A stretch of 64,000 nt of DNA from Mactromeris polynyma (Eukaryota > Mollusca > Bivalvia > Venerida > Mactridae), in the NCBI GenBank assembly GCA_032209605.1, contig JASFXZ010000003.1, positions 11,348,807 through 11,412,806 of the forward strand, in the 5' to 3' direction. Positions within the stretch are counted from its first letter, which is position 1. Each line of letters opens with the position of its first letter. The position numbers were made by a program, and so were the translations under genes. This document shows positions 3,021-62,068 of the stretch, piece after piece. The notes beneath the pieces are model-generated. The model had not been told where the DNA came from. It searched no databases and saw nothing but the letters and a program-made list of their open reading frames with translations.

Positions 3021-3339
3021 TGTGGACATTCGTATACGTGGCATTTATGCTTTCTATCGTTTAATTTATGGATTGGCATATTAGACATATGTACATGTGC
3101 AAGTATGAATATACTTTTCATTGTAAGCATTACTAAGTTGGATTTTAATTTGTTCGCAGCTATAATCAGTGTTTTGTGGCGATCTAACCACTTCGTACTA
3201 TATATCTAAAATCGTTTCATAAACGAACGTTAGAGTGAAATTTAAATGAGTATGAAATAAATGTTGTTGGTATAAATATCATGTTAGTATATCAAAGATG
3301 GAATAGGGTTTAATAATGATTTTATTATGAGTGTGTTAT

Positions 3340-5120: not shown

Positions 5121-5429
5121 CAAGTAAAAAATTGCTGCCTGATGCAGCAAAGGTGGGTGCACGGCGTCAACAAAATGAAATAGAACAACTGCAATTTGAA
5201 GTAACAGTATGTGTTTATTATGCTTTAATGTGTAACTATATATTAATGTATAAAAAGTACATTTGTAGTTTTAGTAGTAGGAATTTATTAAGGAACAGAC
5301 TAGTTTTTGTATGGACAGTTAAACAGAAATAAAAATTGATAGTGCGGAAAACTTTCATGATAATGAACATCATGCATGTAAATTAAGACAACATTATACA
5401 TATCAAAATGCAAAACATTGATTGAAACA

Positions 5430-11246: not shown

Positions 11247-11270
11247 TGCACGGCGTTGACACGCCGTGCA
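11247..11270. repeat. Perfect 10-bp stem hairpin at LINE junction
   Basis: TGCACGGCGT and ACGCCGTGCA are exact reverse complements separated by TGAC. The hairpin ends immediately before the ATA at which the LINE frame resumes. The 10-mer also occurs at 5158-5167 near the other junction. Confidence 0.85.
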
Positions 11271-32400: not shown

Positions 32401-35400
32401 ATTTGTTTCTAAATTGACCAATATTCTCGGACAACTAGCTTCCTATGTCGGACAAGTCAAAGTTTACATTTCCATAAGTCCGGGACAAGTGCCTTTGAAA
32501 TAAAATTCTAGAGCCCTGATTAGTACGGACTGCATTAAATGTAAAGTCCACAGCCAATATTGGTATATTATCAACTTACAAACATTTTTCTATGTTGAAT
32601 AATTTAACTTGTCTGAGCGTTTTTTATCCATTTTAGTTTTTGTCACAACAAATAATTATATATGACTGCATTACTGTTGGACGTGTAGAGATTTTTACCT
32701 CAACTAGTTTCATCATAGGCACAGGGTTGAAATAATGAAGACCACCAAATCTATCCATTCTCGATGTAGCTACTGCTATCTCTTTGATTGGAATTGACGA
32801 GGTGTTGCTGGCAAAAATGGCACTCCTGAAGAACAAACATGAATTATCATTCATTTTCATAAATGTTAATATCACGATAAGATAACAGACTATGTGGCTC
32901 ATATGTGGGATAAACACCATGTGATATCTTTTAAACCTTGATTTTTTTGTTTCTATATAATGCTATACAAATATCGATAAATTGTTCATACCTCAGTATG
33001 TATACAGTAAAACTTCACTTAAAGACCACCTCAATAATTAGACCACCTCTGTATTAAGAATACCATTTTCAAGTCCAATTTCACTGATTTGCTCTTTTTT
33101 AACCTCAAATTAAGACCACCTCAATAAGAAGACCAGTTTTCAAGGGTTGCAATGGTGGCTTATTATTGAGGTTATACTGTATACAGATACATACTTGGTC
33201 ATCAATGACACCATAACCCCTCAGTGAATGAGGTTTCCTCAAAGTTTGGTTAAGTTCTGTACTAAAATATCATGTAGTGCTTAATTAGTTCTATACAAAC
33301 TTAAAGAAGCTACACAAAAACAAGACAATCCCATGCAAATCAGACCAAAAATGAAAGTTGTTCAGTTTCAAAATTGTGCCACTTTTATACACTAGCCAAA
33401 TTTTTTGACTATACAATGAAGAAAGAACCATGAAGGTCCATGGCTATATAACAGGTCAAGCTGCATTACACATTCCACAAAAACGGGTCTATAAGGAGTT
33501 GACTACCCGACACTTTCAGACAATCGGTATCACAATAATAAAAAAGCATTTCCATGCAGACGAAGACTTTGAGGGGTTACAGTAAAGCAAGTTTGGGTAT
33601 TCTGTTGAGTTTTTACAATATTTACCATATATTACAGAACTTTTTGAAGAACCCTCATATTCATATTTTAACATCAATGTTACTTACTGAGGGGCTGCTT
33701 TGTCCAATGAAGCAAACAATTGTTTCTTTATATCGAGGTTCTCTACAATGGCTTCAATAACAAGATCTGTTTGTTTTACAGCTTCCACTGCATCAGTCTG
33801 TGTCTGTAGACGACCCAGAACTTCGGACACAAACGCCTCACCTTCCTGTAAACATTGAGGAAAAGAACAATGCTTGGATAATTCCATTAACTACTTTACA
33901 AATTGTGAAGTTTGCAATGTCTAAAGTACATGACATTGGCTAATTCGAGAAATGTAGTGCATATTTCCTCCTTCACAGAAGAACATTGTTATATACTTCA
34001 CTATTAAACATTAACAATACTCATATCTGCTCGCAAATAGCCTGAAATTGATTTTGACTCTGTCAAAATATAAACTCAAACACTACATCAAGGCCAACAT
34101 TAAACAGTGTGTATTTGCTGTCTTAGATGACACACATGGCAAATGTTTTTTCCAGTCACGATCAAGACAAACATAGTTAAACAATTACTGACAAGTAGTG
34201 TTGATAATGTTCTCTTTTATTCCTTACTCAATGCAGTTTTGTGAGTGGGTTGTAATTAAAAATGTGACTTAGAACACTTATATATTTTTAAGAAACATTT
34301 ATTGACCACAGAGCAAACACCACACAACAACATTTGGGTCCCTGCTGTGGGAGAAATAGTGGTCCATGGTCGAGTGCCCGACTCCCTATATTGTCATGAG
34401 TTTAAATCCTGCTTTCGAGGAGGTTGAGCCGTGAACACCACAATCCCCTTTATCGGGTACCAGGTGTAAGTACTGGTTACTACCCCAGGAAGCAGTCATC
34501 AAGAGCATTTAATACAGGTAGTAAATGAATTTCAACAAACCTGTGGTTTCTCAGCATACTTTTTCTTCACAACTCTTTGAAGACTTTTTGCAATACTACC
34601 CTTGGATTTTGCAAGGATTTCTTCACTCTGATCTACCATAACAACATTGTGTCCAGTAGTGGCTGCGACCTGGAAGTAAATGCCGTGTCTTTACCATGTA
34701 ACATACATTTACAGTAAACCTCAATAATACGACCACCCTTGGGACCCTTGAAAACTAGTCTTATCATTGTGGTGGTCTTAATACTGAGGTTGAATAAAGA
34801 GCAAAATAGGGAAAATAGACTTCAGAATTGAGTTATTATTATTTAGGTGGTGTTATTATTGAGGTGGTCTTTAAGTGAGGTTTTACTGTATTTATCATGT
34901 TATGGAGAATTAGGTTACTAAGTTCATCTTTATGATCTATCGCTGATCAGTGAGATTGTCTCGTATAACTTTGAGTTTCATCACATTCATTAAGAGTTCT
35001 AACAGGCAGATATGGAGCAAACAGAACACCTTAATTTTTTGTCTGTCAATGAAAGTGATTGTCTGTGTATGAAAGTGATTGTCTGTGTATGAAAGTGATT
35101 GTCTGTGTATGAAAGTGATTGTCTGTGTATGAAAGTGATTGTCTGTGTATGAAAGTGATTGTCTGTGTATGAAAGTGATTGTCTGTGTATGAAAGTGATT
35201 GTCTGTGTATGAAAGTGATTGTCTGTGTATGAAAGTGATTGTCTGTGTATGAAAGTGATTGTCTGTGTATGAAAGTGATTGTCTGTGTATGAAAGTGATT
35301 GTCTGTGTATGAAAGTGATTGTCTGTGTATGAAAGTGATTGTATGTGCATGAAAGTGATTGTATGTGCATGAAAATAATTGTCTGCATATGAAAATGAGT

Positions 35401-38400
35401 GTCTGTGTATGAAAGTGATTGTCTGTGAATGATTGTCTGTGTATGAAATTGATTGTCTGTGAATGATTGTCTGTGTATGAAAGTGATTGTCTGTGAATGA
35501 TTGTCTGTGTATGAAAATGATAGTCTGTGCATGAAAATAATTGTCTGCATATGAAAATGATTGTCTATGTATGAAAGTGATTGTCTGTGTATGAAAGTGA
35601 TTGTCTGTGTATGAAAGTGATTGTCTGTGTATGAAAGTGACTATATGTGTATGAAAAAGACTATATGTGTATGAAAGTGACTATATGTGTATGAAAGTGA
35701 TTGTCTGCGTATGAAAGTGACTATATGTGTATGAAAGTGACTATATGTGTATGAAAGTGACTATATGTGTATGAAAGTGAGTGTCTATGTATGAATAAAC
35801 GGTGTATGAAAATGATTGTCTGTGTATGAAAATGATTGTCTGTGTATGAAAGTGATTGTATGTGTATGAAAATGATTGTATGTGTATGAAAATGATTGTC
35901 TATGTATGAAAATGATTGTCTGTGTATGAAAGTGATTGTCTGTGTATGAAAATGATTGTATGTGTATGAAAGTGATTGTATGTGTATGAAAATGATTGTC
36001 TATGTATGAAAATGATTGTCTGTGTATGAAAGTGATTGTCTGTGTATGAAAGTGATTGTATGTGTATGAAAGTGATTGTATGTGTATGAAAATGATTGTA
36101 TGTGTATGAAAATGATTGTCTGTGTATGAAAGTGATTGTCTGTGTATGAAAGTGATTGTATGTGTATGAAAATGATTGTCTGTGTATGAAAGTGATTGTC
36201 TATGTATGAAAATGATTGTCTGTGTATGAAAGTGATTGTATGTGTATGAAAATGATTGTCAATGTATGAAAATGATTGTCTGTGTATGAAAGTGATTGTC
36301 TGTGTATGAAAATGACTGTATGAAAGCGATAGTCCATGTTTGAAAATGATTTTCTGTTATGTATTGTAATTTAAATGATAAAGATACTTGGTTTTGAGAA
36401 ATGCAATGGATGTATTTTGATGTGCAATTATTATGGAAACATTTATGAAAGAAATCAACTGGAAATACCAGTTCCAATGGGAAACTCAAAATAATTGGGT
36501 ATAACTTTAACACTCATTTTTTGTCCTACATTTTCGTTCTGAAATGGAATATTTAAATCTTATTTTTGATCAAATTACTCAAATTTAGGAATACATTCAC
36601 TTAAATAGCAAAAGACTAAATGTAAAAAAAAAATATTATAAAAGATTCAAGTATTTTACTTTGGTACAAGTAATAGAAAAATAACATTAATTCAGTCTAT
36701 TCTAATATTATGTTTATTTCTTAATACATGTAATTTGGACTGAATTGTAAATATACATTAATTTTCCTAATACAGGTATAAAAGCTTTGTTAAACAAAGT
36801 TTATTGATAATGCCTAATGGGCCAATCAGAACAGTAATTATCATAAGTACAACAAACCACTTAAAATGAACTAATGATTGATTATAATTACAAACTTAAT
36901 TAGTTTTAAATGATGTTTGATTGGTAGTTTGTTTGTATACAATTCTGTTTGATGATCTTTTCATGTACACAACATCAAAGTCCTTTGTTTTATTGATTGT
37001 TTGGTGTAAACAAAAATATGTTCATCTAATTAAAACAAACTGGTACAACAATCACCACGCCATGCATATATATACTGAGAAAAGCCCAACCCAAGCCATC
37101 ACATTTGTGAATCAATCACTGAGATAAATTATTCCAAGCTAATAAACAGTAGCTATTATAGAGCAATATAGTAAACTACAAAAGTTTATATTAATATACC
37201 AAGCTAAGACATTAAACTTGAGTAATTTTCTACCCTTAACTATGGATATCCAATCAGCTGCCTCTACTCTATGTCATCAGCTGATAGCTTTACAACACAG
37301 TGATAGGACATTATCGTTACTTGGTAAGTAATATATTTATTAATGCATGATTTGAATAAATTTCTTTACCATGAAAGGTTCCAAGATGAGCTAATTTTTC
37401 TAGATTTAAATGACACTATTTCACATTTCTTTGATAAGATGCCGAAATTAAAACAGAACTGTCTGTAAAATAGGAAGGCATTAATAAGTGGTAACCAACT
37501 CATTAATTAACTAGTTAATGTTATCTTATACAGTTTCTGCTGAATTGTATACATTTCACATTCTACTGAGGTGAAATTTAAACATTATGTTCATTAAATT
37601 CAATACATATTATGTTCATGTAATGATACGTCATTTTGTCAATTAGTTTTTATCAATGCTTATGAAATGTTCTCATTATTTACAGAAAATGAAGTAGCAA
37701 GACTAGGTGAGCAGACATTGATGACAGCTATAGAAGAGAGGGAGTCCAAACATTTACGTCTGCTTCTCCGTCTCTCCATCACTGACGGAGTTCATCATAT
37801 GTATCAACAATACTCAACAAAGAAATGGGCTCAGGTATGTACATTTATTTTACAAAGAGTCATTGTGATCTATGGGGTAGATTATGTGATTATGTTTGTT
37901 GAACCTGACAATGGGCAAGATTTTTAGAACTGTGTTCCTCACAGAACCCCTAAATATGGTGGGGATCCGAAACCTAGGAAGAGGTCATATGATCATTAAT
38001 AGAATGTTAATGAAGTTGGATGAAACACTCTAGGAAGGGGTCATTTGATCATTAGTAAAATGTTAATGAAGTTGGATGAAACAGTCATCAAAATCTGAAT
38101 AAATTTATCATAGAAATATTGCAACATTATGTCACATGGACAGTTTAATTAGTACATCACCATACATCAACACTGCTCTTGTTATTTTAAACCAATTCAA
38201 CAATTAGGTGTTAATGGACTCCAGAAATAATTTCTTTGTACATTCAAGACATTGTTCTGGGTATAATGTAATTTTATATATTGTACTTTTTATTCATTTT
38301 AGGTTCAGAGTACAGCTAAATCCATCAAAACTATTCTGTCATCAGAAGAGATGGACGAATCATCTACATTTCTGATGTCTTCACCATCTTCATCACAAGT

Positions 38401-42037: not shown

Positions 42038-45000
42038 CTAATACTGGTATGGGTAACCAGCTTGTTCCATAGTGTTCTTGATCCAGTCTGAGTACTTGGT
42101 CACATCTTCGAATACACTGGGTTGATCAGCCTTGACACAGTCACCACCCGATGAAGCCAAACCTAACAACACAAAGGATCAGTTAAAACCAAGTACATGT
42201 ATATATCAATAGACAACATTTAAAGCCATTTAGTAATCTTCGCCTCTCTCTTCGTCGCACAAGCACCGTTCTATTCGAGCAGCTTCGTGTAATTTACGAA
42301 TACAACACACATTGTTTACCGCAATAATCGACTAAATGAATTGTAACACAATGGTGTTTGTCACGAGTTATTTCCCTTTATTCATTCTAGAGTTCCCAAT
42401 CTCTTTTGTGATAAAGGGAAATAACTCGTGACAAGTTTTCCTCTCTTTAGGGATAATTGGTTTTGTTAAGCATGGTATAATACTTGCCTTGAATGTACCA
42501 TGCTCCGCTTTGGTCTTTGCACATCAATGGACCTCCGATATCATCCTGTAAATAATACACATACTCTGAATGTACAAGGCAACCCCACCAGAGCAACACG
42601 TACCCTTCTGAGAGTTGCAAATCACAACTGTTATAGAGGAGTCGTTGCTCCAGAGAGGTTAGATTAGTACTGAATGTTAACAACGGGAAAATTGACAGCG
42701 TTGAAGAGAGGTTGTTACTCAAGAAATGGCCATTCTGGAGAGTTTGAAATATATACTGATTTTACCCATGTTATTCTTAATTCAAAGAGCAAAATAACGC
42801 AGACTGAATATATAATTAAAACAGACAAAGCATTGATAGAAGCATGGTTAAGACGTTTTACATGACGAATCAACTCGTATAATGGGAGATTTGTATTCCG
42901 TTGAAACATGGATATTTGATTTTTGACACCAGGCTGTCCAAAGATTTTGCTGAGTATTCAAAAATGATTTGCAGCAAGTTTTGAAAACATGTCCAAGAAA
43001 CAAGTGCGGCGTTTGAAGATTTGTTAAGCGTTAAAGTTTTAAAAATCTGAAGTGGAACTCGAACAAACAATAACATTACCCCACACCAATCCTTTCCTTG
43101 GTTCTTGTAGCCAACACAGACCTCGGTGGCCGTAAGGAACACTGGGAATTCATTCGTGCAAACACTATCGTCCAAGATAGGTAGATCTACTTGGTTCAAT
43201 ACTTCTTCGTTTCCAGTGGCTAAAAATGACAGAATTGCATTGTGAATACAGTAAAAAAAGCACTCAAAGAATCCTTAAATGGTGACCATCTCATAAATAA
43301 ATCCGTAATTTCACGGGCTGGTTTTCAATTTGTCCTCCATATTCCCCCAGTAATCAGACCACCTCATTATTCAGACTGACTTTGACTTCAGAAACGATGG
43401 AGGTCTTATTACAGAGGTTTCATTGTACTTAGACTAATCTTTAATTCTGCTAGCCATAGAGAACAAATACATTAACATTCTTATATTTTTGGTTCACTAA
43501 ATAAACAATGAAACTACGTTATTTTCAAGAACGAATTTTGAATTTCCAAATCATTCAACAACCAATCACAAACATCGTAATTCAACTTAAATGAACATTA
43601 AACAGCCAATCAGGTCAATGGAAGTTCCATGTTGCGGTTGGCTTACGACAACTAATTACTTAATTCAAATGTTGCTTGATACCAAATTTAATGCTTTACT
43701 TTCAGCAATTCTCATGTTATTATTTGATTTATTCATGTTTTAAGATGCTTGCTGTTTATTTGCAAGCTCTTAAAGACACGTGACTTTTGGGGTGCGTAAA
43801 TAGTACAGGAGTGGCGTATGGAGTTGAAGCTTTGTTAATTTGACTCAATATTTTTAAGTTATACCTTATTATGGCAGTCAGTTGACCTTACCAGTTTTCA
43901 TGGACTTACTTATCACCCAGTACTAACTTGCTCTTCCACAAACAGCTGACAAACTCTCAAAAATGTATCAGAGCTAAAGGACAAATGACCGTGGCTAAAT
44001 ATTACGGAAGGACATGACCTGCCCTGCCCGGGAACTGAACACCGTGTCAGCCCAGCGCTCCATCACATGAGCAAACCGGACGGGTTCGAAACGAGTACCA
44101 GAGCCTAAGAATGGTACTGCGAAATCCTTGGATCCAAACTTTCGCCTAACACACCACCTCTGAACCAGGATTTCGCTCAACCCTTGACCCCTACGCATGA
44201 ACGCATTATTATGAACACTATTTGAGACTTTTGAGGTTCACTCACTGGAAGTGCTTCCCCATCCAGGCAAATAGCAAACTTCTCCAACAGTGTATGTATG
44301 TGAGGCATCTGGAATACAGGCGGGAAGGGTGTGGTCATTGAACCTGAAATCATACAACATAAGTATCGGCAGTTTCAAATTATTGGCCGACCCGACCAAA
44401 GGCTGTTTATGCTCGTGTGAACGTGCTTCAATTATATATACCGTTGGAGAATAGTACTTCTTACAAGACTGCATGATTGGCTGTCATGTAATAAAAAGTC
44501 TTACGTGATTGGCTGTGTTGTTTAAACCAATCGTACGTGATTGGCCGTGTCGTATGAACAATTTTACATGATTGACTGTGTTGTAATAACACATTTACAT
44601 GATTGACTGTGTTGTAATAACACTTAACATGATTGACTGTTTTGTAATAACACTTTAACATGATTGGTTGGGTTGTAATAACACTTTTACATGATTGACT
44701 GTGTTGTAATAACACTTTTACATGATTGGCTGGGTTGTAATAACACTTTTACATGATTGACTGTGTTGTAATAACACTTTTACATGATTGACTGTGTTGT
44801 AATAACACTTTTACATGATTGACTGTGTTGTAATAACACTTTTACATGATTGGCTGGGTTGTAATAACACTTTTACATGATTGGCTGGGTTGTAATAAGA
44901 AGTCTTACTGGATTGGCTGTGTTGTTATAACAAGAGCAATGTCGTTCTCCAAAGAAGTGGAGTTGTATGCTGGGTGTAAAACAACTCTCTTCACGTGATA

Positions 45001-48000
45001 GTATTGCTCATGTGGATCAGTGACTGAAATGTTGTATTCTCCAGCATATGCTCTCCAACGGTGAAGGTCAAGATCGTAGAGGGAGTAGCCAGGGCTGTAA
45101 TGTAGAGAATATACGTTGGTTTAACAATCCAATGATTTGCTATATATTTCATAGAAACAACAGGCACCATGTCGGCTTTCAGCATCAGGACAAAGATTAA
45201 ATATACATCTCAATATAAGCGCATTTTTAGTGAGCCCTTTTCGAGAGATCGCACCAGATTTACATTGTGACCGTACGTTGATTTCCAGTTAACCCTGTTA
45301 TTCGAATGATCGCATTTCGAATGGCCCCTATTGAACCGTAGTTTCTCACAAACTATGAAAGAAATGTTATGTAGTGCTTCAGCTTAAACTTTGCGTTATT
45401 ACATAATGTGGTCAATATGAACATGTTGCCAATTTCTCAATACTAATTCAGACTAATTATTCATTACAAAAGATGGTCATTAATACGTTAAGTCCGATTC
45501 TTGACAAACGATGCTGATCGTTTCTAAATGAGTTTCAGTGTTAATTATTATCAATTAAGTTATCAACAAAAGGGTGAAATTCTTAATGTTTTCACAGCGC
45601 TTGACAGTACAGTATATTTAGGTTTTTGTGTTCGTTTATGCGTTAGTTTATTTCTCAATACATTAGACTTTACAGTCCATGAGCATGCACTATTTACAAT
45701 AATAGAACATTTACCACATATGGTCACTGGCAACATAAATTCATACATAAATAGTATCAGAATATATTTATATAGTAATACCAGTTCTGGTAAATTTGAA
45801 TACAAAATGCGAGACAAATCTAAATAGCAGAAAGTTGACATACATAAATCACATCAGATCTATAAACACATATACGTATGAATGACTGAAAAAGCAGTGT
45901 ATACATGCAAGGAACTGTAATTTATCTATAAATGGATGTATATGTAGTATGATATAAGTAACGTGGAGTACTTTAAAAATCACATATCATTACGAAATGT
46001 TTACGATATATTTCTTGATCAAGACTCATCCCTAATGTTGGTTAAGGCATTTTTGAAGTGCATCACGTTTTGCGGTTAGACACGGTGACAGCAAACCAGT
46101 TGTTCTAGGCATTGATAGTACGGTTGTTATTGATTCAAATTGTAGCATATCGGCGATACTGATATATCGAAAGTTGATATATTGATATATCAATTATATT
46201 TCAATTTAATTCCTTTAATAGACTATTCCTATGTTTCTGTGTGTTTATGTGTGTATGCGCTACATATTTAAATATTCAACTTGTATTTTTATGATAACAA
46301 GATACTGTTTAAGCCATTAATCTACATTTTGACGTCATGTATTTTATTATATACGGTCGACATTTGGAATACACTAATCACTCGAGCATTATTTAATAAG
46401 GTGCCGAATATAAAGCGGAATTACGTAAATTTGGCACATTTTTAGAGTGTACCCATTTTCTTGTATTTTCCCGTCATAATATCGATATTTCTAAGTGTGT
46501 ATCGACTATCGATTGACCGAAAAAACGTTGATATATCGATATTGATTGTCTCAATGACAGCCATAAATGACATAGACATTGACGTCCAGTCTAGATCTAG
46601 TACAGTGTATTGTGTTACTGTATCTGAACAGTCTTATCTTCGTACCATAACTGAACAGTCTTATCTTCGTACCATAACTAAAAGTTCCAAATTTTGAAAT
46701 AAGCTAGATCTCAAATCTGTGTAATTATTTTGATCACAAGTCAGAATACGGGACACGTTTTATCAAACAACTGATAAGACAGCGAGTTTGAATTCTCTTA
46801 AACCGCAATTCGTGACATGCCCGCATAGTTTTGTATAATAGAACCGATTTAGACATATAAAAAGAATTCTACAAAAATACCTCTGAAACCTGTTGCTCTG
46901 AAGCGGGTAAATTGACAGGGAATGTTTACTGCTGGGAGATTTTATTATACTTTTGAATAGAGGTTTTTGCTCTGAATAGGGTAAATTCACAGGGAATGTT
47001 TACTGCGGGGAATGTTATTATACTGTTGAATAGATGTTGTTGCTCTGAAGAGGGTAAATTGACAGGGAATGTTTACTGCGGGGAATGTTATTATACTGTT
47101 GAATAGAGGTTGTTGCTCTAAAGAGGGTAAATAGACAGGGAATTGCTTAAGAGAGAACCACTCTGTTGTGGATACATAGTTAAGGTATACAGTAAAACCT
47201 CAATAATAAGACCATCCTTGAGACCCTGAAGACTGGTTTTCTTATTGAGGTGGGCTAAACGTGAGATTTTACTGTAGTGTACGCCGCCGTCAGAATATTA
47301 AACTTATAAATGTCCAGAACATCTAGCGCTGCTTTGTAAAAATACTTTCATGGAAAGACAGAACAATTTGAACTAACCCTTCGAAATGTTGAGCGGAAGT
47401 GAGGATCACGTGTTGATCAATCAGAGCAGCACTTCCGGCAATGAAACCAAGATCGTCAACCAACATTACCTGTAAAATACAAACGTTAGTTCTGAAGTAT
47501 CTTTTAGCGAACCATAATACATGATACCGTTGGGACACTGTATTTTAATACGTCATAAATGTTCCAAACAACAAGTGGTCAGAAGATATCTATACATAGC
47601 AAAGTTAGGCCCCGCGATTAGTTTTTTTCTCAAATAAAAATGTTATTTGAAACTATCCATGTTTATATGTTTTTTAGTTGCGAGTTTGCTAGTATTTTGT
47701 TTCTGTTTAGACGAAACACATAATATAAGAGCCGTAATATTGACTTGTATAATTCCCTAGCGATAATATGTTATTTACAAACATGCTTATAAATACTCTT
47801 GGACGAGTCAATAAATAACTTAGGGTGCGCAAGATTTCCTTAAGATATGTATCCATATAAACCGAAATAGTTCTACTCTTTCCTTTCGAGCAGGCATAAT
47901 GCAATTCTGAGCTATCTCGTTTTACGCGGGAACCCTTACCACCATGTTTATTAGTCAATTGAAACACGTGATGTAAAGTGCTGTTCAGACGGGCGAGTCC

Positions 48001-49109
48001 AACTGTTTGCGCGGGAATTAAGTTAGTGTTGGGGCAATTTATATAAAATGAATAAGTTTGTTTACCATCCATGGCCAGGAACCAGGGGTAGCCACTTGAC
48101 CTCCAACAATACGGTTTGTGATTGGCTGGACATTTGGGACACCACATGGTTGGGCTGTAAATATAACATAAACAACTCAAATATAAAACAAACAAGCATA
48201 AATATAAAACAAACAAGCATAAATATAACATAAAAAATCGCAGATATAACACAAACAAGCGTACATTTAACATAAACAACAACATAAAACACGAACAATA
48301 GTATAATAGCACAAATTATCGTAAAACTTATACACATATGTACAGTAAGACCTCAATAATAAGACCACTAACTGGTTTTCTTATTTAGGTGGTCTTAATA
48401 TAATATAATATAAGGTTGAATAAAAAGCAAACAGTGAAAATTATGTTCTCAATTTTGAGGTGAGATTTTACTGCATATACGCAAAAATTCGATGAAAGAA
48501 GGCCTCGAACATTCACCCGAAGTAACGTGCAGATTACAGAACAACCTCTCTATTACTGCAAATCTCTTTTTCAGAAACATTTTTTGGCGCAACAACTCAA
48601 ATGTATGTCACACAATGCCGCGAAGTTTGTCAACTTGATAATTGAATGGCTACCTTTATTCTTTCGACTCCCGTGGCCGAGTGGTTAAGGCATCCGCCTT
48701 GGAATCGCGGGAGGTCGAATGTTCGAATCCCGGTAGGGGTCCCTGATATGGCCGGTTGGTGAGCCGCCAGATAAGATAAATAATGGTTACCGTGCGCCTA
48801 CCTGTCTGGTGCCTGACATTAAAGGATAGGAATTGGGAGGTAAATGTGGTGTCTCGTAAGTTAGAAATGACTGGCTCTTAAAGAAGAGGTGACACTATAA
48901 TTAATAAACACTTTTTTCTTTCGACTTCTGTAGGACAATGATTTCAGCTAATTGACGGTTTCCATGATTCCATCGACTAGTTCAAATCAATTTAAGCGGC
49001 CTGGCACTTTATAGTAACACTTTCAACAGCAATTCCAATAATAAGAACTCTACTTACTCTGTCCGAAAGCCGCGTTTACTAAACCTAACACACAAATAGC
49101 GAACAGCAT
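42038..49109 (-). CDS. Secreted trypsin-fold serine protease homologue, copy A (8 exons, 279 aa, catalytically dead)
   Basis: Exons in order: 49058-49109, 48066-48154, 47378-47469, 44909-45094, 44246-44343, 43080-43219, 42488-42545, 42038-42162 (840 nt with TAG, all phases fit). Residues 1-16 (MLFAICVLGLVNAAFG) are a signal peptide. The pro-segment has PCGVP (Cys1), then the activation site R|IVGGQVATPGSWPW. The His57 motif reads LTSAQHF instead of LTAAHC: His is Gln, Cys58 is His, and its partner Cys42 is Ala (FIAGSAALI). Asp102 is kept (ENDIALV). Further motifs are CIPD (Cys122) and CYLPGWGST. The Ser195 motif is CGDDIGGPLMC: Ser is Ile. Asp189 is kept in KDWC. Such homologues act as cofactors, binders or regulators, not as proteases; the role here is unknown. 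The exon 7 donor is GC (CAAG|GCAAGT). The paralogue at 52451-62068 has the same structure. Confidence 0.93.
43249..43432. mobile_element. Old degenerate MITE copy, intron 5 of copy A
   Basis: TACAGTAAAAAAAGCACTCA at the left, GAGGTTTCATTGTACTTA at the right, with ATCAGACCACCTCATTATTCAG inside. The counterpart in copy B (53707-53880) shows it predates the duplication. Confidence 0.55.
43990..44095 (-). repeat. tRNA-derived SINE head
   Basis: Minus strand: TTGCTCATGTGATGGAGCGC resembles an A box and GTGTTCAGTTCCCGG a B box, correctly spaced. It lies in copy A intron 5 and seems missing from copy B, where the intron is about 290 bp shorter. Confidence 0.5.
44462..44908. repeat. Intronic minisatellite (31-bp unit), copy A, abutting exon 4
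   Basis: About 14 units of CATGATTGACTGTGTTGTAA + TAACACTTTTA (31 bp). The array runs directly into the end of exon 4: the coding bases for TTQPIQ plus the splice donor (ACAACACAGCCAATCCA|GTAAGA, read on the minus strand) are themselves one repeat unit. Units have been homogenised towards GATTGACTG in this copy, unlike copy B. Most units carry AGCCAATCA or AGTCAATCA (CCAAT-box-like) on the minus strand. Confidence 0.9.
45097..46140. other. Copy A intron 3, non-coding, contains the transposon empty site
   Basis: No exon seen. ACATCAGATCTATAAAC at 45851-45867 is the unoccupied version of the site where copy B holds a 3,458-bp transposon. The overlapping 99- and 92-codon frames on opposite strands (45528-45841) recur in copy B but show no splice support or family signature. 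Confidence 0.5.
46140..46570. repeat. ATCGATAT-rich inverted sequence block
   Basis: ATATCGGCGATACTGATATATC near 46147 and TATCGATATTTCTAAGTG...ATATATCGATATTGATTG near 46480-46547 form partial inverted repeats at the two ends of a roughly 400-bp block. It is also present in copy B (59774-60170). Possibly an old non-autonomous transposon; the ends are not certain. Confidence 0.4.
46890..47150. repeat. 73-bp tandem repeat expanded in copy A
   Basis: TTGCTCTGAAG(A/C)GGGTAAATT starts units near 46892, 46968, 47041 and 47114 (spacings 76, 73, 73). Each continues through GACAGGGAATGTTTACTGCG and GTTATTATACTGTTGAATAG. Copy B has only about 1.5 units at 60525-60600, so the array grew in A (or shrank in B) after duplication. 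Confidence 0.85.
47198..47275. mobile_element. Short MITE inserted in copy A only, flanked by TA
   Basis: TA-CAGTAAAACCTCAATAATA ... GTGAGATTTTACTG-TA. Copy B has the empty site (AAAGGTTTAGTGTACGCC near 60635) where copy A reads GGTATA[element]TAGTGTACGCC. This gives a TA target duplication, as in Tc1/mariner-type elements. The copy is internally deleted (about 78 bp). Confidence 0.85.
48341..48476. mobile_element. MITE (CAGTAAAACCT family) in copy A intron 1
   Basis: Left ACAGTAAGACCTCAATAATA, right TTTTGAGGTGAGATTTTACTG. It lies in a 400-bp stretch (about 48180-48594) that copy B lacks; that stretch also has an AAATATAAAACAAACAAGCAT short tandem repeat at 48175-48290. Confidence 0.75.
48666..48912 (+). 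repeat. tRNA-derived SINE, copy A intron 1
   Basis: A box GTGGCCGAGTGGTTAAGGCA, B box ATGTTCGAATCCCGG, body GATATGGCCGGTTGGTGAGC and TACCTGTCTGGTGCCTGACA, and tail CACTATAATTAATAAACA. The counterpart in copy B (61619-61880) shows insertion before the duplication. The tRNA-like head lacks a closed acceptor stem and is not a tRNA gene. Confidence 0.8.
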
Positions 49110-52450: not shown

Positions 52451-55400
52451 CTAATACTGGTATGGGTAACCAGCTTGTTCCATGGTGTTCTTGATCCAGT
52501 CTGAGTACTGGGTCACATCTTCGAATACACTGGGTTGATCAGCCTTGCTACAGTCACCACCCGATGAAGCCAAACCTAAAAACACAAAGGATCAGTTAAA
52601 ACCAAGTATATATCAATAGACAACATTTAATGCCATTCAGTAATTTTCGCCTCTCTTTTCGTGCATAATCGCTGTTCTCTTCGAGCAGTTACGTGCAAAT
52701 AATTTACGAATACAAACACATAGCTTTAATTTTTCATTGTTTACCGCAATAATCGACTAAATGAATTGTAACACCATGGAGTTTGTCACGAGCTCTTTCC
52801 CTGTATTCATTCTAGATAGTGTTCTCTATCTCTTTTGTGATAAAGGGAAATAGCTCATGACAAGTTTTCCTCTCTTTACGGAAAAAGGGAGAGCACTCTA
52901 GAAAGGACAAGGGAAATAACTCGTGACAATCTCTTGTGGTGTAACATATGAAACGTCACAATATACATGTACGTGTAATTGGTTTTGTTAAGCATGGTAT
53001 AATACTTGCCTTGAATGTACCATGCTCCGCTTTGGTCTTTGCACATCAATGGACTTCCGATATCATCCTGTAAATAATACACATACTCTGAATGTACAAG
53101 GCAACCCCACCAGAGCAACACGTACCCTTCTGAGAGTTGCAAATCACAACTGTTGTAGAGGAGTCGTTGCTCCAGAGAGGTTAGATTAGTACTGAATGTT
53201 AACAACGGGAAAATTGACAGCGTTGAAGAGAGGTTGTTACTCAAGAAATGGCCATTCTGGAGAGTTTGAAATATATACTGATTTTACCCATGTTATTCTT
53301 AATTCAAGGGGCAAAATAACGCAGACTGAATATATAATTAAAACAGACAAAGCATTGAAATAAGCAAGGTCAAGAACTTTACATAATGTCGTAAAACGAA
53401 TTAATTCGCATAATGGGAGATGATGATTCAGCTGAAATATTGATAATTCATTTTCGAAACATTGTCCAAAGATGTTGCTGAATGTTCAAAAATTATGTTT
53501 CAGCAAGGTTTCAAAAATCTCAAGTGGAACTCAAACAAACAATAACTTTACCCCACACCAATCCTTTCCTTGGTTCTTGTAACCAGCACAGACCTCAGTG
53601 GCAGCAAGGAACACTGGGAATTCGCTTTGGCAAACACTATCGTCCAAGATAGGTAGATCTACTTGGTTCAATACTTCTTCGTTTCCGGTGGCTGAAGAGG
53701 AAAGAATACAGTAAATAAATCACTCAAATAATCCATCTCACGAATAAACCCATATTTTCACGGCCCTATTTAAAAAAAAATCTTCCATGAATATTTCCCC
53801 CTCCCCCAGTAATCAGACCACCTCCCTATTTAGACTGACTTTTACTTTAGAAACGCTGGTGGTCTAATTATAGAATATTATTCGTCTATCCAAACGATGC
53901 TTTCATCTTCTTATTTTACATCGACAGAAACTCAAGGTCTTACACCATACATATAAGTTATAGTAAGTCGTTGCCTATTTTGGTATGTGAGAGCTGTGCT
54001 ACGATAAAACTTGTCTTCATTTAATACCAAAAGTAGTAAAATCGGACTTCTACTTTTCTTTTTATAGCAATTCCAATATTTAGAATTAGATACAAAAGTA
54101 TGCTACATAATGATGACGTTGCGTCAGAATGTACATAATTCTTCAAAAAAATTTACTGCTCTTCAAATTATAAAAACAACAAATTATGCATTACTTAAAA
54201 ATATTTCCTCGTAAGTTTCATACTATAAATCACAATTAAGCCTCAAAAACTTCTTCGGACAAAACGCTTAGTTGGTGACGGAAAAGCCTAAGAATGGGAC
54301 TGCGAAGTCCTTGGAACTCGAATTACATCTAACACACCACCTCTGAACAAGGAATTCGATCTACCCTAGACCCGTACGCCTAAACGCATTATTATGAACG
54401 ATATTTGAGACTTTTGAGGTTCACTCACTGGCAGTGTCTCCCCATCCAGGCAAATAGCAAACTTCTCCAACAGTGTATGTGTGTGAGGCATCTGGAATAC
54501 AGGCGGGAAGGGTGTGGACATTGAACCTGAAATCATACAACATAAGTATCAGCTGTTTCAAATTATTGGCCGACCCGACCAAAGGCTGTTAATGCTCGTG
54601 TGAACGTGCTTCAATTATATATACCGTTGAAGAATAGTACTTCTTACAAGACTGTGGGATTGGATGTGATGTAATAAAAAGTATTACGTCATTGGTTATG
54701 ATGTAAGAACACATCGTACATTATTGGCTGTGTTGTAAAAACAAATAGTACGTGATTGGCTCTGTTGTATGAACAAATAGTACGTGATTGGCTGTGTTGT
54801 AAAAACAAATAGTACGTGATTGGCTCTGTTGTATGAACAAATAGTACGTGATTGGCTGTGTTGTAAAAACAAATAGTACGTGATTGGCTATGTTGTATGA
54901 ACAAATAGTACGTGATTGGCTGTGTTGTAAAAACAAATAGTACGTGATTGGCTATGTTGTATGAACAAATAGTACGTGATTGGCTGTGTTGTAAAAACAA
55001 ATAGTACGTGATTGGCTGTGTTGTAAAAACAAATAGTACGTGATTGGCTCTGTTGTAAGAACAAATCGTACGTGATTGGCTGTGTTTATGAACAATTGGT
55101 ACGTGATTGGCTGTGTTGTAAGAACAATTTTACATGACTGGCTGTGTTGTAATAACAATTTGACATATTGGCTGGGGTTGCAATAACACTTTTACATGAT
55201 TGGCTGGGTTGTAATAAGAAGTCTTACTGGATTGGCTGGGTTGTAATAACACTTTTACATGATTGGCTGGGTTGTAATAAGAAGTCTTACTGGATTGGCT
55301 GGGTTGTAATAACACTTTTACATGATTGGCCGGGTTATAATAAGAAGTCTTACTGGATTGGCTGTGTTAATATAACAAGAGCAACGTCATTCTCCAAAGA

Positions 55401-58400
55401 AGTGGAGTTGTATCCTGGGTGTAAAACAACTCTCTTCACGTGATAATATTTCTCATGTGGATCAGTGACGGAAATGTTGTATTCTCCAGCATATGCTCTC
55501 CAAAGGTGAAGGTCAAGATCGTAGAGGGAGTAGCCAGGGCTGTAATGTAGAAAATATACGTTGGTTTAACAATCCAATGATTTGCTATATATTTCATAGA
55601 AACAACAGGCACCATGTCGGCTTTCAGCATCAGGACAAAGATTAGATATACATCTCAATATAAGCGCACTTTTTAATTAATACGTTAAGTCCGATTCTTG
55701 ACAAACGATGCTGATCGTTTCTAAATGAGTTTCAGTCTTAATTATTATCAATTAAGTTATCAACAAAAGGGTGAATTTCTTAATGTTTTCACAGTGCTTG
55801 ACAGTACAGTATATTTAGGTTTTTGTGTTCGTTTATGCGTTAGTTTATTTCTCAATACATTAGACTTTACAGTCCATGAGCATACACTATTTACAATAAT
55901 TGAACATTTACCACATATGGTCAATGGCAACATAAATTCATACATAAATAGTATCAGAATATATTTATATAGTAATACCAGTTCTGGTAAATTTGAATAC
56001 AAAATGCGAGACAAATCTAAATAGCAGAAATTTGACATACATAAATCACATCAGGGCCCGTATTACAGAAGCTTCTTATCCTTAAAATTTTCCTTAAATG
56101 ACGAAACAATCTTAAGTTTTACAGTTTTGTCCTTAAGATTTTAGAAAATTCTTAAGTAGTATTACAGAATGTTCTTATCTTATTTTTTCACTTAAGGTAA
56201 GCGATTTTCTCCTTAGATTTTAAGGAAAGCTAGACCTCCCTTATCTTGTATACAAAATCTTAAGTTATAGAATCGCCTTCATTTTCTGAACCAGTGAACG
56301 GCACAATTATCTAACATCTACGAATTCAACACAACGTTCGTGTCACGTTGCGTTCAGATATAAATTTACATAAAGTAGGCCAACCGGTGTTCAGTAAATT
56401 CCGTAGAATTATCAAATTTCGCTCTTGAAATTGTGTCAACGCTGTGAGCAAAATCAACAATATTTACCTCATAAAATGCTGTTTTTAGTGTTAATTATAC
56501 ATACAACAAACTATGTAATAATTCAGGGACGTGATGTAGACATACAGTGAATATATGTGAAGCTTAGAATGTACTGATCAGCCCTCTTTGATAGCAATTC
56601 TTGAGAGATCTATTACCAGGGAACAAGCTAGGATCGAATTTTAGGGAGAAGTGGGTGAAATTGGGGAGAAGTGGACACGGCGCGCCAATATCATTGAATT
56701 TGTTCCTTGTAATACCAAAGTTTTCTTAATACCTGTTGTTTGACTAGTTGTTGAACTATTAAATTTCATACAATAATTTTACAAGCTTGATCCCTGTCGA
56801 TAAATATGTGTTTCTGCAAATAGCTAAAAACGTTCTTAAGTATCTATAAGAACGGAATGATAGAAATTGCACTGTGAATCGGAAATTTCAAAAGTGTGAA
56901 CTTCGGATAGGTTAATTTTCGGATGTAAGGACTTTTAAGACATTTACTGTGATAGCATCAATATGATACACCTATTGTATTGTCTGCCATGTGATTATTG
57001 TACAGTCAGCATTTCCTTGTATGATCGTGAAGTTTTCATTGTTAACTGTCAATGGGGTGTGAATGTGCTATTTGTAACTGACAGTTATAAACAAACATGC
57101 GATGGTTAATATGCACTGCAGTAGGTTGTACAATAGGGGTAAAAAGAACAGTGTGATAATATTTCACATTTCTGATGGTGCACGGCGCCAGTGATGGATG
57201 CAGGCGGTGAAGAGAATGAGTCTTGATGACCCGTCTAAGACATGGGAACCAAAACCGCATGATAGGATTTGTTCACAAAACTTTATTGGAGGTAAGTTAT
57301 TACAAAAATATCATTTTATTCAATACATATCAATAAATTAATTGTCCTATGGTGATATGATTTTGTATTGACGGTAGAGTCATTGCCACACATGAGTGTC
57401 ATTGGCATCCCATATAAATTGACATAATTATAATTCACCATAGATATAGATGAACATGTTATGCCTATCCAGTAAGATCATATCATAATGAAAGTATAAA
57501 TAATGGTACTGGCTACCTTGTATGAATTTATATTAAAACCTTACACATTGAATTAATGCATCGAATTGATCTACTTCAGGACATCCGCCTGATGACATAT
57601 GATAGAGGACCCCAGATACATCCCATCCATATTTACTGAATACTCCACTGTCGAGGGCGACCAAAGATGACCAGAGGTTGGAGGCAACTGATGTGCCTGT
57701 AGGTCGGATTTGTTCAGATGACCGGCTATTGTTTGTATTAATGAAACTTCGACTGAATCTAACAGACTTGGCAATCAAAATCAACATTATATTATGTCCA
57801 ATACAAATATCAAAGATATATAACAGATGTGTAACAGTGCTTGCCAGAAAGCTTAAATTCCTCATTAAATGGCCTGACAATATGGGGCTTGAACCAAAGA
57901 CCTCCTAAATTATAGTATGGCGCTCTACCGACTGAGCTTACCAGGTGGTCGCCTAACCCCACTTCACTTAAACACTCCCCACTCGTCCGGCATCCGAGAC
58001 TCAACCGTCAAACAATGCTGTCACATATAAATAATTCTATGGGAAAATGTGCACCCAATGTGGGGCTCGAAAAGTTTTTACACACATCAATTACATAATA
58101 AAAATGTAATAACTCTTTTTGGTCATATCATTTTAACCTGAAATTGTTTTTATGTTTCGGATAAGGTAATCATGATGTTTGACAAGGAAGCATAAGTGAA
58201 TCGAAACTGGTCCTGTGTCATGCTATTAGTTGACCGATATGTTAAACTTGGATCATGACTGAGAATACGTTTTACTATTTTTTTATATCTCTCTTTATAT
58301 GCTTATTTTAAGATTATAATATTGTTTTTCTCTGAATCTGTGTGTTTAATTTGATAATTGAAATAATATTTTCATAGATTGTATGTATCATTGATAGCAT

Positions 58401-61400
58401 ATGTATGTTTATTTCTTTGTATCAGTTGTAGATATGTTATGCTCTCCAGTTATTGGAGGTAATAAAAGTTTATATTACTTTTTAAATAGTAGTTTTCAAT
58501 CATGATTTGAATATTATGCTTTGAAATACACAGTTCTATAGAAATAAAATTGTAATGACTGTTATATAGTGTGTGAATTTCTTTTTCAACTTAGTTATCT
58601 ATATACGGCGCTATATCTGCTCTAGACTAGTTTTATACTAATCACAAGTGCTAAGCTCTTGTTTCATCTAGGTTCGTATGTGCATGCTTTTGAGCAAAAT
58701 TTATCAGGGGAAAAGTACTATCTGTGGAGACGTATGATTTTTCGCAACAAGCTTTGTAATACTACAGTTAAAAATATAAAACATGCATCTAACCAAAGGA
58801 TTGATAATAGTGGTTGCTTATTATATCACAGACAGCTGCAAATGTTGGGTTGAAATTCATACAACATGTCTGTTCTCAGTACACAACTCATGACAGGACA
58901 TTATAAGAAGTGCAAGCATATTGTATCTATATTATTATTGGTATAGATGGACCGGGTGTGTGTTGTGTTTGTGCCATGTCCAAGGACATATGCTGGTTAT
59001 ATTCAATCTGAATTACTGGTACTAATTAGCCTCAACAACTAGATCACGACTTACCGACTGCATTATTCATGTTATATCATACAAATTTACTGAGCAAAAC
59101 TTCTCACACAACATACAGTCAATTTCCATCTGTTATAATGCAAAATGTTCAAATATAATGCAGCAAAAACAAAGATTTATATGAAATGACAGTTGTACGT
59201 GCTACAACGTAGCTAGGTAAATTCATTTATTTGCTTGGAGTTAGAGTAAAGTCTGCTACATTCTGCGCACGCATTATTTTTTCAATTTCCGGTTCTATTT
59301 TTGGAACGGGAAAAACCGATTTACGTTAGCAACAGTCTTAAGAATTTGCTTAAGATGAAAAATAAGGATAAGGAAATTTTAGTTAAAATTCTCTTAAGTT
59401 GGATCTGTAATAGTACTTAAGATTTTCCTGAACCTTATCCTTACCGAAGTACAAATCTTAAGATTTCTGTATTTCTTAAGTTATATCTTAAGAAGCTTCT
59501 GTAATACGGGCCCAGATCTATAAACATACATACGCAGTGTATACATGCAAGGTAACTGTAATTTATCTATAAATGAATGTAAAGGTAGTATGATATAAGA
59601 AACGTGGAGTACTTTAAAAATCACATTTCATTACGAAATGTTTGATCAAGACTCGTCCCTAATGTTGGTTAAGGCATTTTTGAAGTGCATCACGTTTTGC
59701 GGTTAGACACGGTGACAGCAATCTAGCTGTTCTAGGCATTGACAGTAGGATTGTCACTGATTCAAATTGTAGCATATCGGCGATACTGATATATCGAAAG
59801 TTGATATATCAATTATATTTTATAATTCCTTTAATAGACTATTCCTGTTTTTCCGTATGTTTGTGTATGTATCCGTATACCCTACATATTTAAATGTTCA
59901 ACTTGTATGTTTATGGTAACAAGATACCGTTTAAGAAATTAATCTACACTTTTAACGTCATGTATTATATTATATAATGCCGACATTTGGAATGCACTAT
60001 GCACTAGAGCTCTGTTTAACAAGATGCCCACTGCAAAGCGACATTAAGTAAGTTTGGCACTTTCTTAAACTGTACCCATTTTCTTGTATCCCCCCATAAT
60101 ATCGATATTTGTAAGTGTGTATCGAATATCGATCGTCAGAAAAAATCGTTCGTATATCGATATCAATTGTATCAATGACAGCCCTAATTGGCATAGAGAT
60201 TGACGTCCAGTCTATATCTAGTACAGTGTATAGTGTTACTAAATCTGAATAGCCTTACCATAACCAAAAGTTCCAATTTTGAAATAGGCTAGATCTCAAA
60301 CTTCTATAATTCGGTGAAATTATTTGGTCAGAATATAGGGCACGTTTTATCAAACAACTGATAAGACAGCGAGTTTGAATTATCTTAATCCGCAATTCGT
60401 GACATATCCCGCATAGTTTTGTATAATAGAACCGATTTAGACATATAGAAATAATTCTACAAAAAGACCTCTGCAACCTCTCTTTAGCAACACCCGCAGC
60501 GCTTGGAGAAATAAATTGTTGTTGAGAGATTGTTGCTCTGAAGAGGGTACTAGGGAATGTTGGCTGCGGGAATGTTATTATATTGTTGACTATGATATGG
60601 GTTGTTCCTCAAGAGAGAACCGCTCTTGGGTGGTTACAAAGGTTTAGTGTACGCCACCATTAGAATATCAAAATTATCAATGTCCAGAACATCTAGCGCT
60701 GCCTTGTAAAATGAGTTTCATGGAAAGACAGAACAATTTGAACTTACCCTTCGAAATGTTGAGCGGAAGTGAGGATCACGTGTTGATCAATCACAGCACC
60801 ACTTCCGGCGATGAAACCAAGATCGTCAACCAACATTACCTGTAAAATACAAGCGTAAGTTATTAAGTATCAATGAGCGAACCATAGTACATGAAATCGA
60901 CGGGACACTGAATTTGTATACGTCATAAATGTTCAAAACAACAAGTGGTTACAAGATATCTATACATAGCAATAAATCAAAGTTAGTCCACGCGGTTAGT
61001 TTATTTCTCAAATAAAAATAATATTTGAAACTGTCCATGTTTATATTATATGTTAATTTGCTGGATTTTGTTTCAGTTTAGATCAAACACATAATATCAG
61101 AGCCGTAATGTTGACTTGTATAATTCCCTAGTGATAATATGTTATTATAAGAAGCTTTTGGACGAGTCAATAAATAACTTAGGGTGTGCAAGATTTCCTT
61201 CAGATATGTATCCATATAAACCGAAACATTAATACTGTTTCCTTTCGAGAAGGCATTGTGCAATTCTGAGCTATGTCGTTTTACGCGGGAAACCTTTCCA
61301 CCATGTTTATTGGACAAATGAAACACGTGATGTAAAGTGCTGTTCAGACGGGCGAGTCCAACTGTTTGCGCGGGAATTAAGTTATTGTTGGGGCAATTTA

Positions 61401-62068
61401 TATAACAATGAATGAGTTTGTTTACCATCCATGGCCAGGAACCAGGGGTAGCAACTTGACCTCCAACAATACGGTTTGTGATTGGCTGGACATTTGGGAC
61501 ACCACATGGTTGGACTGTAATATAACACAAACAACTCAAATGTATGTCACAAAATGCCAAGAAGTTTATCAACTTGTCAACTTGATAATTGAAAATTATG
61601 GTGGCTACCTTTATCCTTTCGACTCCAGTGGCCGAGTGGTTAAGGCATCCACCTTGAGAGCGGGAGGTCGAATGTTGGAATCCCGGTAGGGGTCCGTGAT
61701 ATGGCCGGTTGGTGAGGCGCCAGCTAGTTAAATATTGGTTACCGTACGCCTACTTGCATGGTGCCTGGCATAAAAGTATAGGAATCGGGAAGTAAATGTG
61801 CTCAGAAAGTTGATGTCTCATAAGTCAGAAATGACTGGCTCTTTAAGTAGCGGTGACACTATAATTAATAAACACTTTTTCCTTTTGACTTCTACTAATG
61901 ATTTCAGCTAATTGACGGTTCCATGATTCCACCGACTAGTTCAAATATATTTAAGCGGCCTGGGATTTTATAGTAATACTTTAAACATCAATTTCAATAA
62001 TAAGAATTCTACTCACTCTGTCCGAAAGCAGCGTTTACCAAGCCTAACACACAAATAGCGAACAGCAT
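52451..62068 (-). CDS. Secreted trypsin-fold serine protease homologue, copy B (8 exons, 279 aa, catalytically dead)
   Basis: Exons in order: 62017-62068, 61426-61514, 60748-60839, 55354-55539, 54429-54526, 53552-53691, 53010-53067, 52451-52575. Lengths are 52, 89, 92, 186, 98, 140, 58 and 125, identical to copy A, with no stop or frameshift. It has the same signal peptide and R|IVGGQ activation site, and the same loss of catalytic His (LTSAQHF) and Ser (GDDIGSP, with Gly197 also Ser here). Asp102 (ENDIALV) and Asp189 are kept. Differences from copy A are scattered substitutions, e.g. GSGAVID for GSAALID, VCQSEF for VCTNEF, GWGDTA for GWGSTS. Intact frames in both copies suggest that the non-catalytic protein is under selection. 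The exon 7 donor is again GC. Intron 3 is enlarged to 5.2 kb by a transposon. Confidence 0.93.
53707..53880. mobile_element. Old degenerate MITE copy, copy B intron 5
   Basis: Counterpart of 43249-43432: TACAGTAAATAAATCACTCA and ATCAGACCACCTCCCTATTTAG are recognisable; the right end is lost. Confidence 0.5.
53881..54428. other. Copy B intron 5, non-coding
   Basis: No exon or new element seen. The region near 54290-54400 still aligns with copy A. Confidence 0.45.
54640..55353. repeat. Intronic minisatellite, copy B, abutting exon 4, with decoy splice donors
   Basis: About 22 units. The outer part is a 32-bp unit (CGTGATTGGCTGTGTTGTAA + AAACAAATAGTA), alternating with a TGTATGAACAAATAG variant. 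The part next to exon 4 is a 63-bp compound unit that repeats the exon end and 5' splice site: TCTTACTGG (minus-strand CCA|GTAAGA) occurs at 55222-55230, 55285-55293 and at the real donor 55348-55356. Minus-strand units carry AGCCAATCA (CCAAT-box-like). The dominant variant differs from copy A, so the two arrays have turned over independently. Confidence 0.92.
55540..56051. other. Copy B intron 3, non-coding
   Basis: Aligns with copy A 45095-45854. A segment of copy A near 45225-45470 is shortened here. Confidence 0.5.
57102..57291 (+). pseudogene. Broken THAP zinc-finger exon within the transposon
   Basis: Translation from ATG 57102 gives MVNMHCSRLYNRGKKNSVII, then a region with WMQAVKRMSLDD and KPHDRICSQNFIGG, ending at a donor GGAG|GTAAGT (57291). 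This follows the THAP layout (Cys pair, FH/FP, W...AVKR, P, ICSxHF). An in-frame TGA at 57192-57194 splits it. The second zinc Cys is Tyr and the final zinc His is Asn, so it is non-functional. THAP domains occur in P, Kolobok and some Harbinger-related transposases and in host proteins derived from them. Confidence 0.7.
57292..57870. other. Transposon interior, no intact ORF
   Basis: Contains three overlapping short frames (57533-57908). None resembles a DDE transposase to my eye. Confidence 0.4.
57880..58030 (-). repeat. tRNA-derived SINE nested in the transposon
   Basis: Minus strand: A box TAAGCTCAGTCGGTAGAGCG and B box TTTGGTTCAAGCCCC, about 33 bases apart. The 5' leader includes GGTTAGGCGACCACCTGG. 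It is a different tRNA-type head from the SINE in intron 1. Confidence 0.7.
58031..59320. other. Transposon interior, non-coding
   Basis: AT-rich, no ORF with support. The subterminal CTTAAG-rich block starts near 59330. Confidence 0.4.
60525..60600. repeat. Residual unit of the 73-bp repeat in copy B
   Basis: TTGCTCTGAAGAGGGTACTAGGGAATGTTG-type sequence equals about one unit of the array expanded at 46890-47150 in copy A. Confidence 0.6.
61619..61880 (+). repeat. tRNA-derived SINE, copy B intron 1
   Basis: Counterpart of 48666-48912: GTGGCCGAGTGGTTAAGGCA, ATGTTGGAATCCCGG (B box now mutated), GATATGGCCGGTTGGTGAGG, and tail CACTATAATTAATAAACAC. Confidence 0.8.

What the first reader, a model, noticed from the sequence alone, without database searches (positions are those of the whole stretch)
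44462..45094. Intronic minisatellite apparently seeded from an exon end and its 5' splice site (both paralogues)
In both protease-homologue genes the minisatellite in intron 4 runs without a gap into exon 4. The bases coding for TTQPIQ plus the donor (AGCCAATCCA|GTAAGA) match the repeat unit. The Q-P-x-x-F-N-D stretch is normal family sequence at this place in trypsin-fold proteins, so the exon is the likely source and the array the derivative. An exon-intron boundary that seeded its own tandem array is unusual.
Basis: partly seen in the sequence, partly recalled or inferred. Interest (0 to 1): 0.75.

Follow-up and report, generated by a model that had tools for sequence, protein, structure and literature searches.

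The report
Minisatellite born from an exon's end
In two sister genes of what is probably a bivalve mollusc, the last coding bases of an exon and the start of the next intron appear to have been copied head to tail many times inside that intron, a kind of repeat already known from lancelets as a 'mirage'.

Summary
In both protease-homologue genes the intron-4 array (31/32-bp units) runs unbroken into exon 4; the first unit is the exon end with its 5' splice site. The exon is the likely source. Eight close paralogues have the same boundary and phase without the array. Read in the exon's frame, 26 of 36 intronic units score like family members against 18 non-array exon ends; 0 of 19,587 random 24-mers do. 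The exon end has not diverged clearly faster than the rest of exon 4. All 18 perfect matches found for a unit 20-mer lie in these two introns. The array probably predates the A/B duplication (dS 0.08) and then turned over separately. Gene B holds two more exact copies of exon end plus donor; 33 of 36 intronic units lack GTAAG. An in-frame stop behind the true donor should make decoy use unproductive (inferred). Not a new kind: lancelet 'mirages' are the same structure, and repeats at human exon-intron boundaries are reported (PMC3087553, PMC3902484, PMC2812944; passages). New here are the probable host and paralogue evidence for direction.

The parts
44909..45094 (-). Gene A exon 4 (186 nt), ending ..VITTQPI + CA, phase 2; likely source of the array
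   Evidence: Splice sites cattacag|..CCA|gtaagact; the joined frame is open over exons 2-8; collinear with 8 paralogues and cross-species homologues
44900..44931 (-). Gene A unit 0: 23 exonic bases + 9 bases of intron including donor GTAAGACTT (the repeat unit that is the real exon end)
44462..44908 (-). Gene A intronic array, 14 further units of about 31 bp (TRF call: 44472-44932, period 31)
44496..44527 (-). Gene A second-last unit A13, which keeps the donor-like GTAAGACTT (28/32 to exon unit)
44344..44908 (-). Gene A intron 4 (565 nt)
44246..44343 (-). Gene A exon 5 (FNDHTLPACIPD..)
55354..55539 (-). Gene B exon 4 (186 nt), ending ..VILTQPI + CA, phase 2
55345..55376 (-). Gene B unit 0: exon end + donor
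54640..55353 (-). Gene B intronic array, 22 further units of mostly 31/32 bp (TRF call: 54658-55368)
55282..55313 (-). Gene B unit B02: exact copy of AGCCAATCCA|GTAAGACTT inside the intron (possible decoy 5' splice site)
55219..55250 (-). Gene B unit B04: second exact copy of AGCCAATCCA|GTAAGACTT inside the intron
54527..55353 (-). Gene B intron 4 (827 nt)

Best explanation
This is a 'mirage'-type minisatellite. In the common ancestor of genes A and B, about 32 bp spanning the end of exon 4 and its 5' splice site (22-23 coding bases, 9-10 intron bases) was duplicated in tandem. The extra copies fell downstream of the real donor, became intronic, and multiplied by slippage or unequal exchange (mechanism inferred). 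Splicing presumably continues from the first, exon-joined donor, so the array is removed with the intron. An in-frame stop (CAG TAA) lies directly behind that donor, so decoy use would truncate the protein (inferred from sequence). After the A/B duplication the arrays diverged: A amplified a 31-bp ATGTAAAAGT form, B amplified a 32-bp CACGTACTATTT form, and in B a stretch of about 63 bp that includes the exon end stands three times in tandem. Most intronic units have lost the donor's +5 G. Supported by data: anatomy, direction of descent, restriction to two introns at the tested sensitivity, array age relative to the A/B split. Inferred: copying mechanism, splice choice, lack of function.
For: The register runs from exon into array without a gap, far above chance. 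Eight of 8 close paralogues with exon 4 have the same boundary and phase, no such array in the stretch scanned by TRF (about 1.5 kb behind the donor), and an exon-end versus own-downstream score of 8-10 against 24 in A and B. In-frame unit translations score 15 or more against 18 non-array exon ends in 26 of 36 intronic units (family members against the rest: mean 16.9, minimum 10.1); 0 of 19,587 random 24-mers do (maximum 11.3). For 6 of 6 unit forms the best ungapped match in paralogue L063 (1672 positions) is its exon-4 boundary in register, 17-19/29. All 18 perfect matches to a unit 20-mer in 793 Mb lie in these two introns. A and B units interleave, and the last units A14 and B22 are sisters, support 98/93. 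GTAAGACTT stands in the first and second-last units of A (A00, A13). Only A13, B02 and B04 of 36 intronic units keep a donor as strong as the real one by U1 pairing energy.
Against: No orthologous intron DNA from another species and no transcript of this species were available, so splice choice is inferred. Against the second paralogue group (L059, L062) the register match is weaker: 13-16/29, rank 3 to 94 of 2172. Ten of 36 units score under 15 on the family test, two of them under 7.7. In gene B the last 22 nt match the paralogues at 12-14/22, a little below the rest of the exon (91-97/143). Synonymous sites are saturated between A/B and the paralogues, so an array lost from those genes cannot be strictly excluded. 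Stretches on both sides of the array are 90-99% identical between A and B, against about 80% in other introns, though 97-100% stretches occur elsewhere too; gene conversion may have copied an array between the genes. The unit tree has 32 columns and one firm fork.
Confidence: 0.86

Rival explanations
1. The array came first (inserted satellite or element) and its sequence then overwrote or was captured as the exon end.
For: Exon ends of A and B share Q (CAG) with most units, where 17 of the 18 distinct non-array exon ends used have another residue (E in most). In gene B the last 22 nt are slightly more diverged from the paralogues than the rest of exon 4 (12-14/22 against 91-97/143).
Against: Exon 4 ends at the same residue in 8 paralogues and, as far as predicted frames show, in the cross-species homologues. 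In gene A the last 22 nt are as similar to the paralogues (14-16/22) as the rest of the exon (88-94/143). The other residues encoded by the units (V-I-T-.-.-P-I) are family-typical. Homologue P0019 also has Q there, and three B units read E.
Confidence: 0.06
2. The unit belongs to a dispersed satellite or transposable element of this genome that happens to abut exon 4 in both genes.
For: The genome is rich in tandem arrays (30 TRF rows, some overlapping, in 64 kb).
Against: All 16 matches of a 92-bp probe and all 18 perfect matches of a 20-mer pattern lie in the two exon-4/intron-4 regions. Six one-mismatch sites lie elsewhere, against 3 for the reversed control pattern. The DNA search skips very common words, and a probe of the B-type unit did not complete.
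Confidence: 0.03
3. The retained units are functional: decoy donors in the array tune exon-4 splicing or nonsense-mediated decay of these transcripts.
For: Two exact decoy donors in B and one strong one in A; a stop directly behind the real donor would make decoy use unproductive.
Against: 33 of 36 intronic units lack GTAAG. Lancelet mirages are reported not to disturb splicing (PMC3087553, PMC3902484, passages). No array was seen in the eight other paralogues.
Confidence: 0.05

Closest known systems
Lancelet 'mirages' (Adh3, globin BflGb6/BflGb9, troponin C, PGBD5)
   Same: Minisatellite-like tandem copies of an exon-intron boundary inside a gene; many but not all units keep a splice signal; boundary units escape homogenisation; the 10-72 bp unit range quoted for Adh3 covers 31/32 bp (PMC3087553 passages; PMC3902484 passage).
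   Different: Here the host is probably a bivalve and not a lancelet, the array lies at a 5' splice site in two paralogues, and eight array-less paralogues polarise the change. Length polymorphism and transcripts are untested here.
Variable internal tandem repeats in human segmental-duplication genes (PMC2812944, passages)
   Same: Minisatellite units of about 30 bp in recent paralogues; when they lie at an exon-intron boundary they may alter splicing or form introns.
   Different: Those are described as expansions within exons that may become intronic; here the array sits in an intron that the array-less paralogues already have. Individual human cases were not compared.
Intron gain by tandem duplication of AG/GT-bearing sequence (Rogers 1989; Zhuo et al. 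2007; Gao and Lynch 2009: cited in PMC3087553, not read)
   Same: A tandem duplication that includes a splice signal inside a gene.
   Different: No new intron arose: the intron is at the same place in eight array-less paralogues.
Ordinary intronic minisatellite
   Same: Tandem units with local turnover.
   Different: The unit is derived from adjoining coding sequence and its splice site.

Membership tests
Mirage (tandemly repeated exon-intron boundary) | Tandem units span an exon-intron boundary and are continuous with the real exon | tested here: met
Mirage (tandemly repeated exon-intron boundary) | Units derive from the exon boundary (array-less relatives keep the single boundary) | tested here: met
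   8 of 8 close paralogues with an exon-4 hit; 26 of 36 in-frame unit translations family-like
Mirage (tandemly repeated exon-intron boundary) | Many but not all units keep splice signals | tested here: met
   GT kept in donor register in 34 of 36 intronic units (my reading of the sites), GTAAG in 3 of 36
Mirage (tandemly repeated exon-intron boundary) | Array does not disturb normal splicing | not testable with these tools
   No RNA of this species. Homologous proteins P0001 and P0002 from other sources run exon 4 into exon 5 without insert, which says nothing on array-bearing genes
Mirage (tandemly repeated exon-intron boundary) | Length instability between alleles | not tested
   One assembly only; the two paralogues differ in unit number and form
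Intron gain by tandem duplication | The duplication created a new intron | tested here: not met
   Same intron, same phase in 8 array-less paralogues
Trypsin-fold (S1) protease homologue (host gene) | Trypsin domain | tested here: met
   PF00089, E 3.4e-48, residues 15-248 of the gene-A product
Trypsin-fold (S1) protease homologue (host gene) | Catalytic His and Ser replaced | tested here: inconclusive
   LTSAQHF where LTAAHC and DDIGGPL where GDSGGPL are expected; compared only by eye with recalled motifs

The most novel reading that the evidence does not exclude
Boundary-seeded minisatellites are a general animal mutation mode, not a lancelet oddity, and here the process is recursive: the live exon end was copied again into its own intron (B00 against B02 and B04), so that a gene keeps producing decoy donors that later decay, mostly by losing +5 G.
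Probability: 0.3. Interest if true: 0.52.

Novelty: new member of a known kind. Interest (0 to 1): 0.38.

Why it matters
It carries the mirage structure, which the papers seen here describe under that name only from lancelets, to what looks like a mollusc. It adds array-less paralogues that fix the direction of change. Such loci are natural tests of how the spliceosome chooses between a real donor and near-identical copies, and of how coding sequence turns into satellite DNA.

Tried and rejected
Chance similarity: rejected. Dispersed satellite: not found at the sensitivity. Array overwriting the exon: not favoured. Homology between the non-array remainder of intron 4 in A/B and the regions of array-less paralogues: only 14-bp hits at E 0.71-0.76, so the seeding site within the old intron cannot be traced. 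DNA hairpin as a driver of expansion: z -1.58 for an A-type dimer, -0.10 and 0.15 for the other two, not convincing. Naming the species by assembly size or a guessed name in the literature gave nothing. An 11-mer shared with exon 2 of both genes (CCAGCCAATCA) is at chance level (E 5.2). More distant trypsin-like hits (for example on C231, C232, C235) were not examined for arrays.

Papers: PMC3087553, PMC3902484 and PMC2812944, passages only; others in search listings only; PMC1783408 not held.

Full report
What is there. The window lies in a 793-Mb assembly, on a 38-Mb contig. Two neighbouring minus-strand genes, A (exons 2-8 at 48154..42038) and B (61514..52451), encode trypsin-fold proteins (PF00089, E 3.4e-48 for A) with open joined frames over exons 2-8 (A, B). 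They are 0.08 apart in dS and 0.035 in dN. Intron 4 of each holds a 31/32-bp minisatellite that runs unbroken into exon 4. Unit 0 is the end of the exon: about 22-23 coding bases and 9-10 intron bases including the donor GTAAGACTT.

More than chance. The exon-end 32-mer scores 24 against its array. Other window 32-mers reached at most 18 (4000 sampled) and 17 (31,296 tested against truncated arrays).

Source and derivative. Searching the assembly with the exon 4-6 peptide found eight more close genes with exon 4 (68-73% identity), 3.4 Mb away; more distant trypsin-like hits were not followed. All eight end exon 4 at the same residue and phase with a single donor. TRF finds no array of this kind in about 1.5 kb behind the donor, although other short arrays occur there. 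Their exon end scores 8-10 against their own downstream sequence. Cross-species homologues, seen only as predicted frames, end at the same place. Two of them, P0007 and P0020 (the latter named Dreissena polymorpha, a bivalve), appear to read some codons into the intron and show no repeat of the exon end there. Scored against 18 distinct non-array exon ends, the in-frame translations of 26 of 36 intronic units reach 15 or more; true family members average 16.9 (minimum 10.1), and none of 19,587 random 24-mers reaches 15. Ten units fall short, two of them below 7.7 (B06, B09). Against the paralogues the last 22 nt of exon 4 match at 14-16/22 in A and 12-14/22 in B, the rest of the exon at 88-94/143 and 91-97/143: equal in A, slightly lower in B, with no clear burst of change. 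Together these make the exon the likely source and the array the derivative.

Not a satellite from elsewhere. A 92-bp probe matched 16 places, all in the two exon-4/intron-4 regions. A unit pattern gave 18 perfect matches, all there, and 16 with one mismatch, of which 10 are there (the exon-A end included) and 6 elsewhere; the reversed control pattern gave 3. The tool scores only the best candidates and its DNA search skips very common words, and a probe of the B-type unit did not complete.

History. A and B units interleave in a unit tree, A01 equals B03, and the last units A14 and B22 are sisters with 98/93 support, the only firm fork. So the array probably existed before the A/B split, unless gene conversion carried it over; identity on both sides of the array is 90-99%, but such stretches also occur elsewhere. 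Later, A multiplied a 31-bp form and B a 32-bp form. In B a stretch of about 63 bp that includes the exon end stands three times, so that B02 and B04 carry exact donors. The first and second-last units of A keep GTAAGACTT (A00, A13), as expected if the donor sequence is ancestral to the unit; the second-last unit of B reads GTAATACTT.

Splicing. GT survives in the donor register in 34 of 36 intronic units but GTAAG in only 3; U1 pairing energy is -4.5 kcal/mol at the real donor and -1.7 or weaker in the other 33. Reading past the true donor meets TAA at once, so decoy use should truncate the product. Use of the first donor is inferred; there is no RNA evidence from this species.

What is known. 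Tandem repeats spanning exon-intron boundaries are described in lancelet Adh3, globin, troponin C and PGBD5 genes, under the name mirages, and reported not to disturb splicing (PMC3087553 and PMC3902484, passages). Minisatellites of about 30 bp in human paralogues, some at exon-intron boundaries, are reported to alter gene structure and may form introns (PMC2812944, passages). Searches of the held library listed no molluscan case; most subscription papers are not held, so this is not a claim of priority. The intron-gain model does not apply here, because the intron is present in the array-less paralogues.

Verdict. Real, well supported, and a new member of a known kind in what is probably a new phylum for it. 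The host is called a bivalve only on one named homologue (67% identity) and is not otherwise shown.

Noticed in passing
window 42488 / 53010 (end of exon 7, genes A and B): Intron 7 of both genes has a GC donor (CAAG|GCAAGT), so it looks like a GC-AG intron.
   Followed up: partly
L015, intron offset 348-484: A 17-bp array (CTAGAGCAACAACCTCT, 8 copies) stands in intron 4 of one paralogue and was not found by TRF in three near-identical ones (L016-L018): a young array, by eye not related to the exon end.
   Followed up: no
window 45479-45857 and 55676-56054: Patch of 98% identity between genes A and B in intron 3, among stretches of about 80%: possible gene conversion near the array-bearing boundary.
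   Followed up: partly
G000:C223 7.87-7.98 Mb: Cluster of at least eight more protease-homologue genes in both orientations; 13 exon-6 hits against 8 exon-4 hits there.
   Followed up: partly
window 35039-36319: A 20-bp array of 65 copies; part of it is open over 183 codons on the minus strand (34999-35550).
   Followed up: no
window 3331-5183, 11256-12380, 14005-16076: Open frames that look, by eye, like pieces of non-LTR retrotransposon reverse transcriptase.
   Followed up: no
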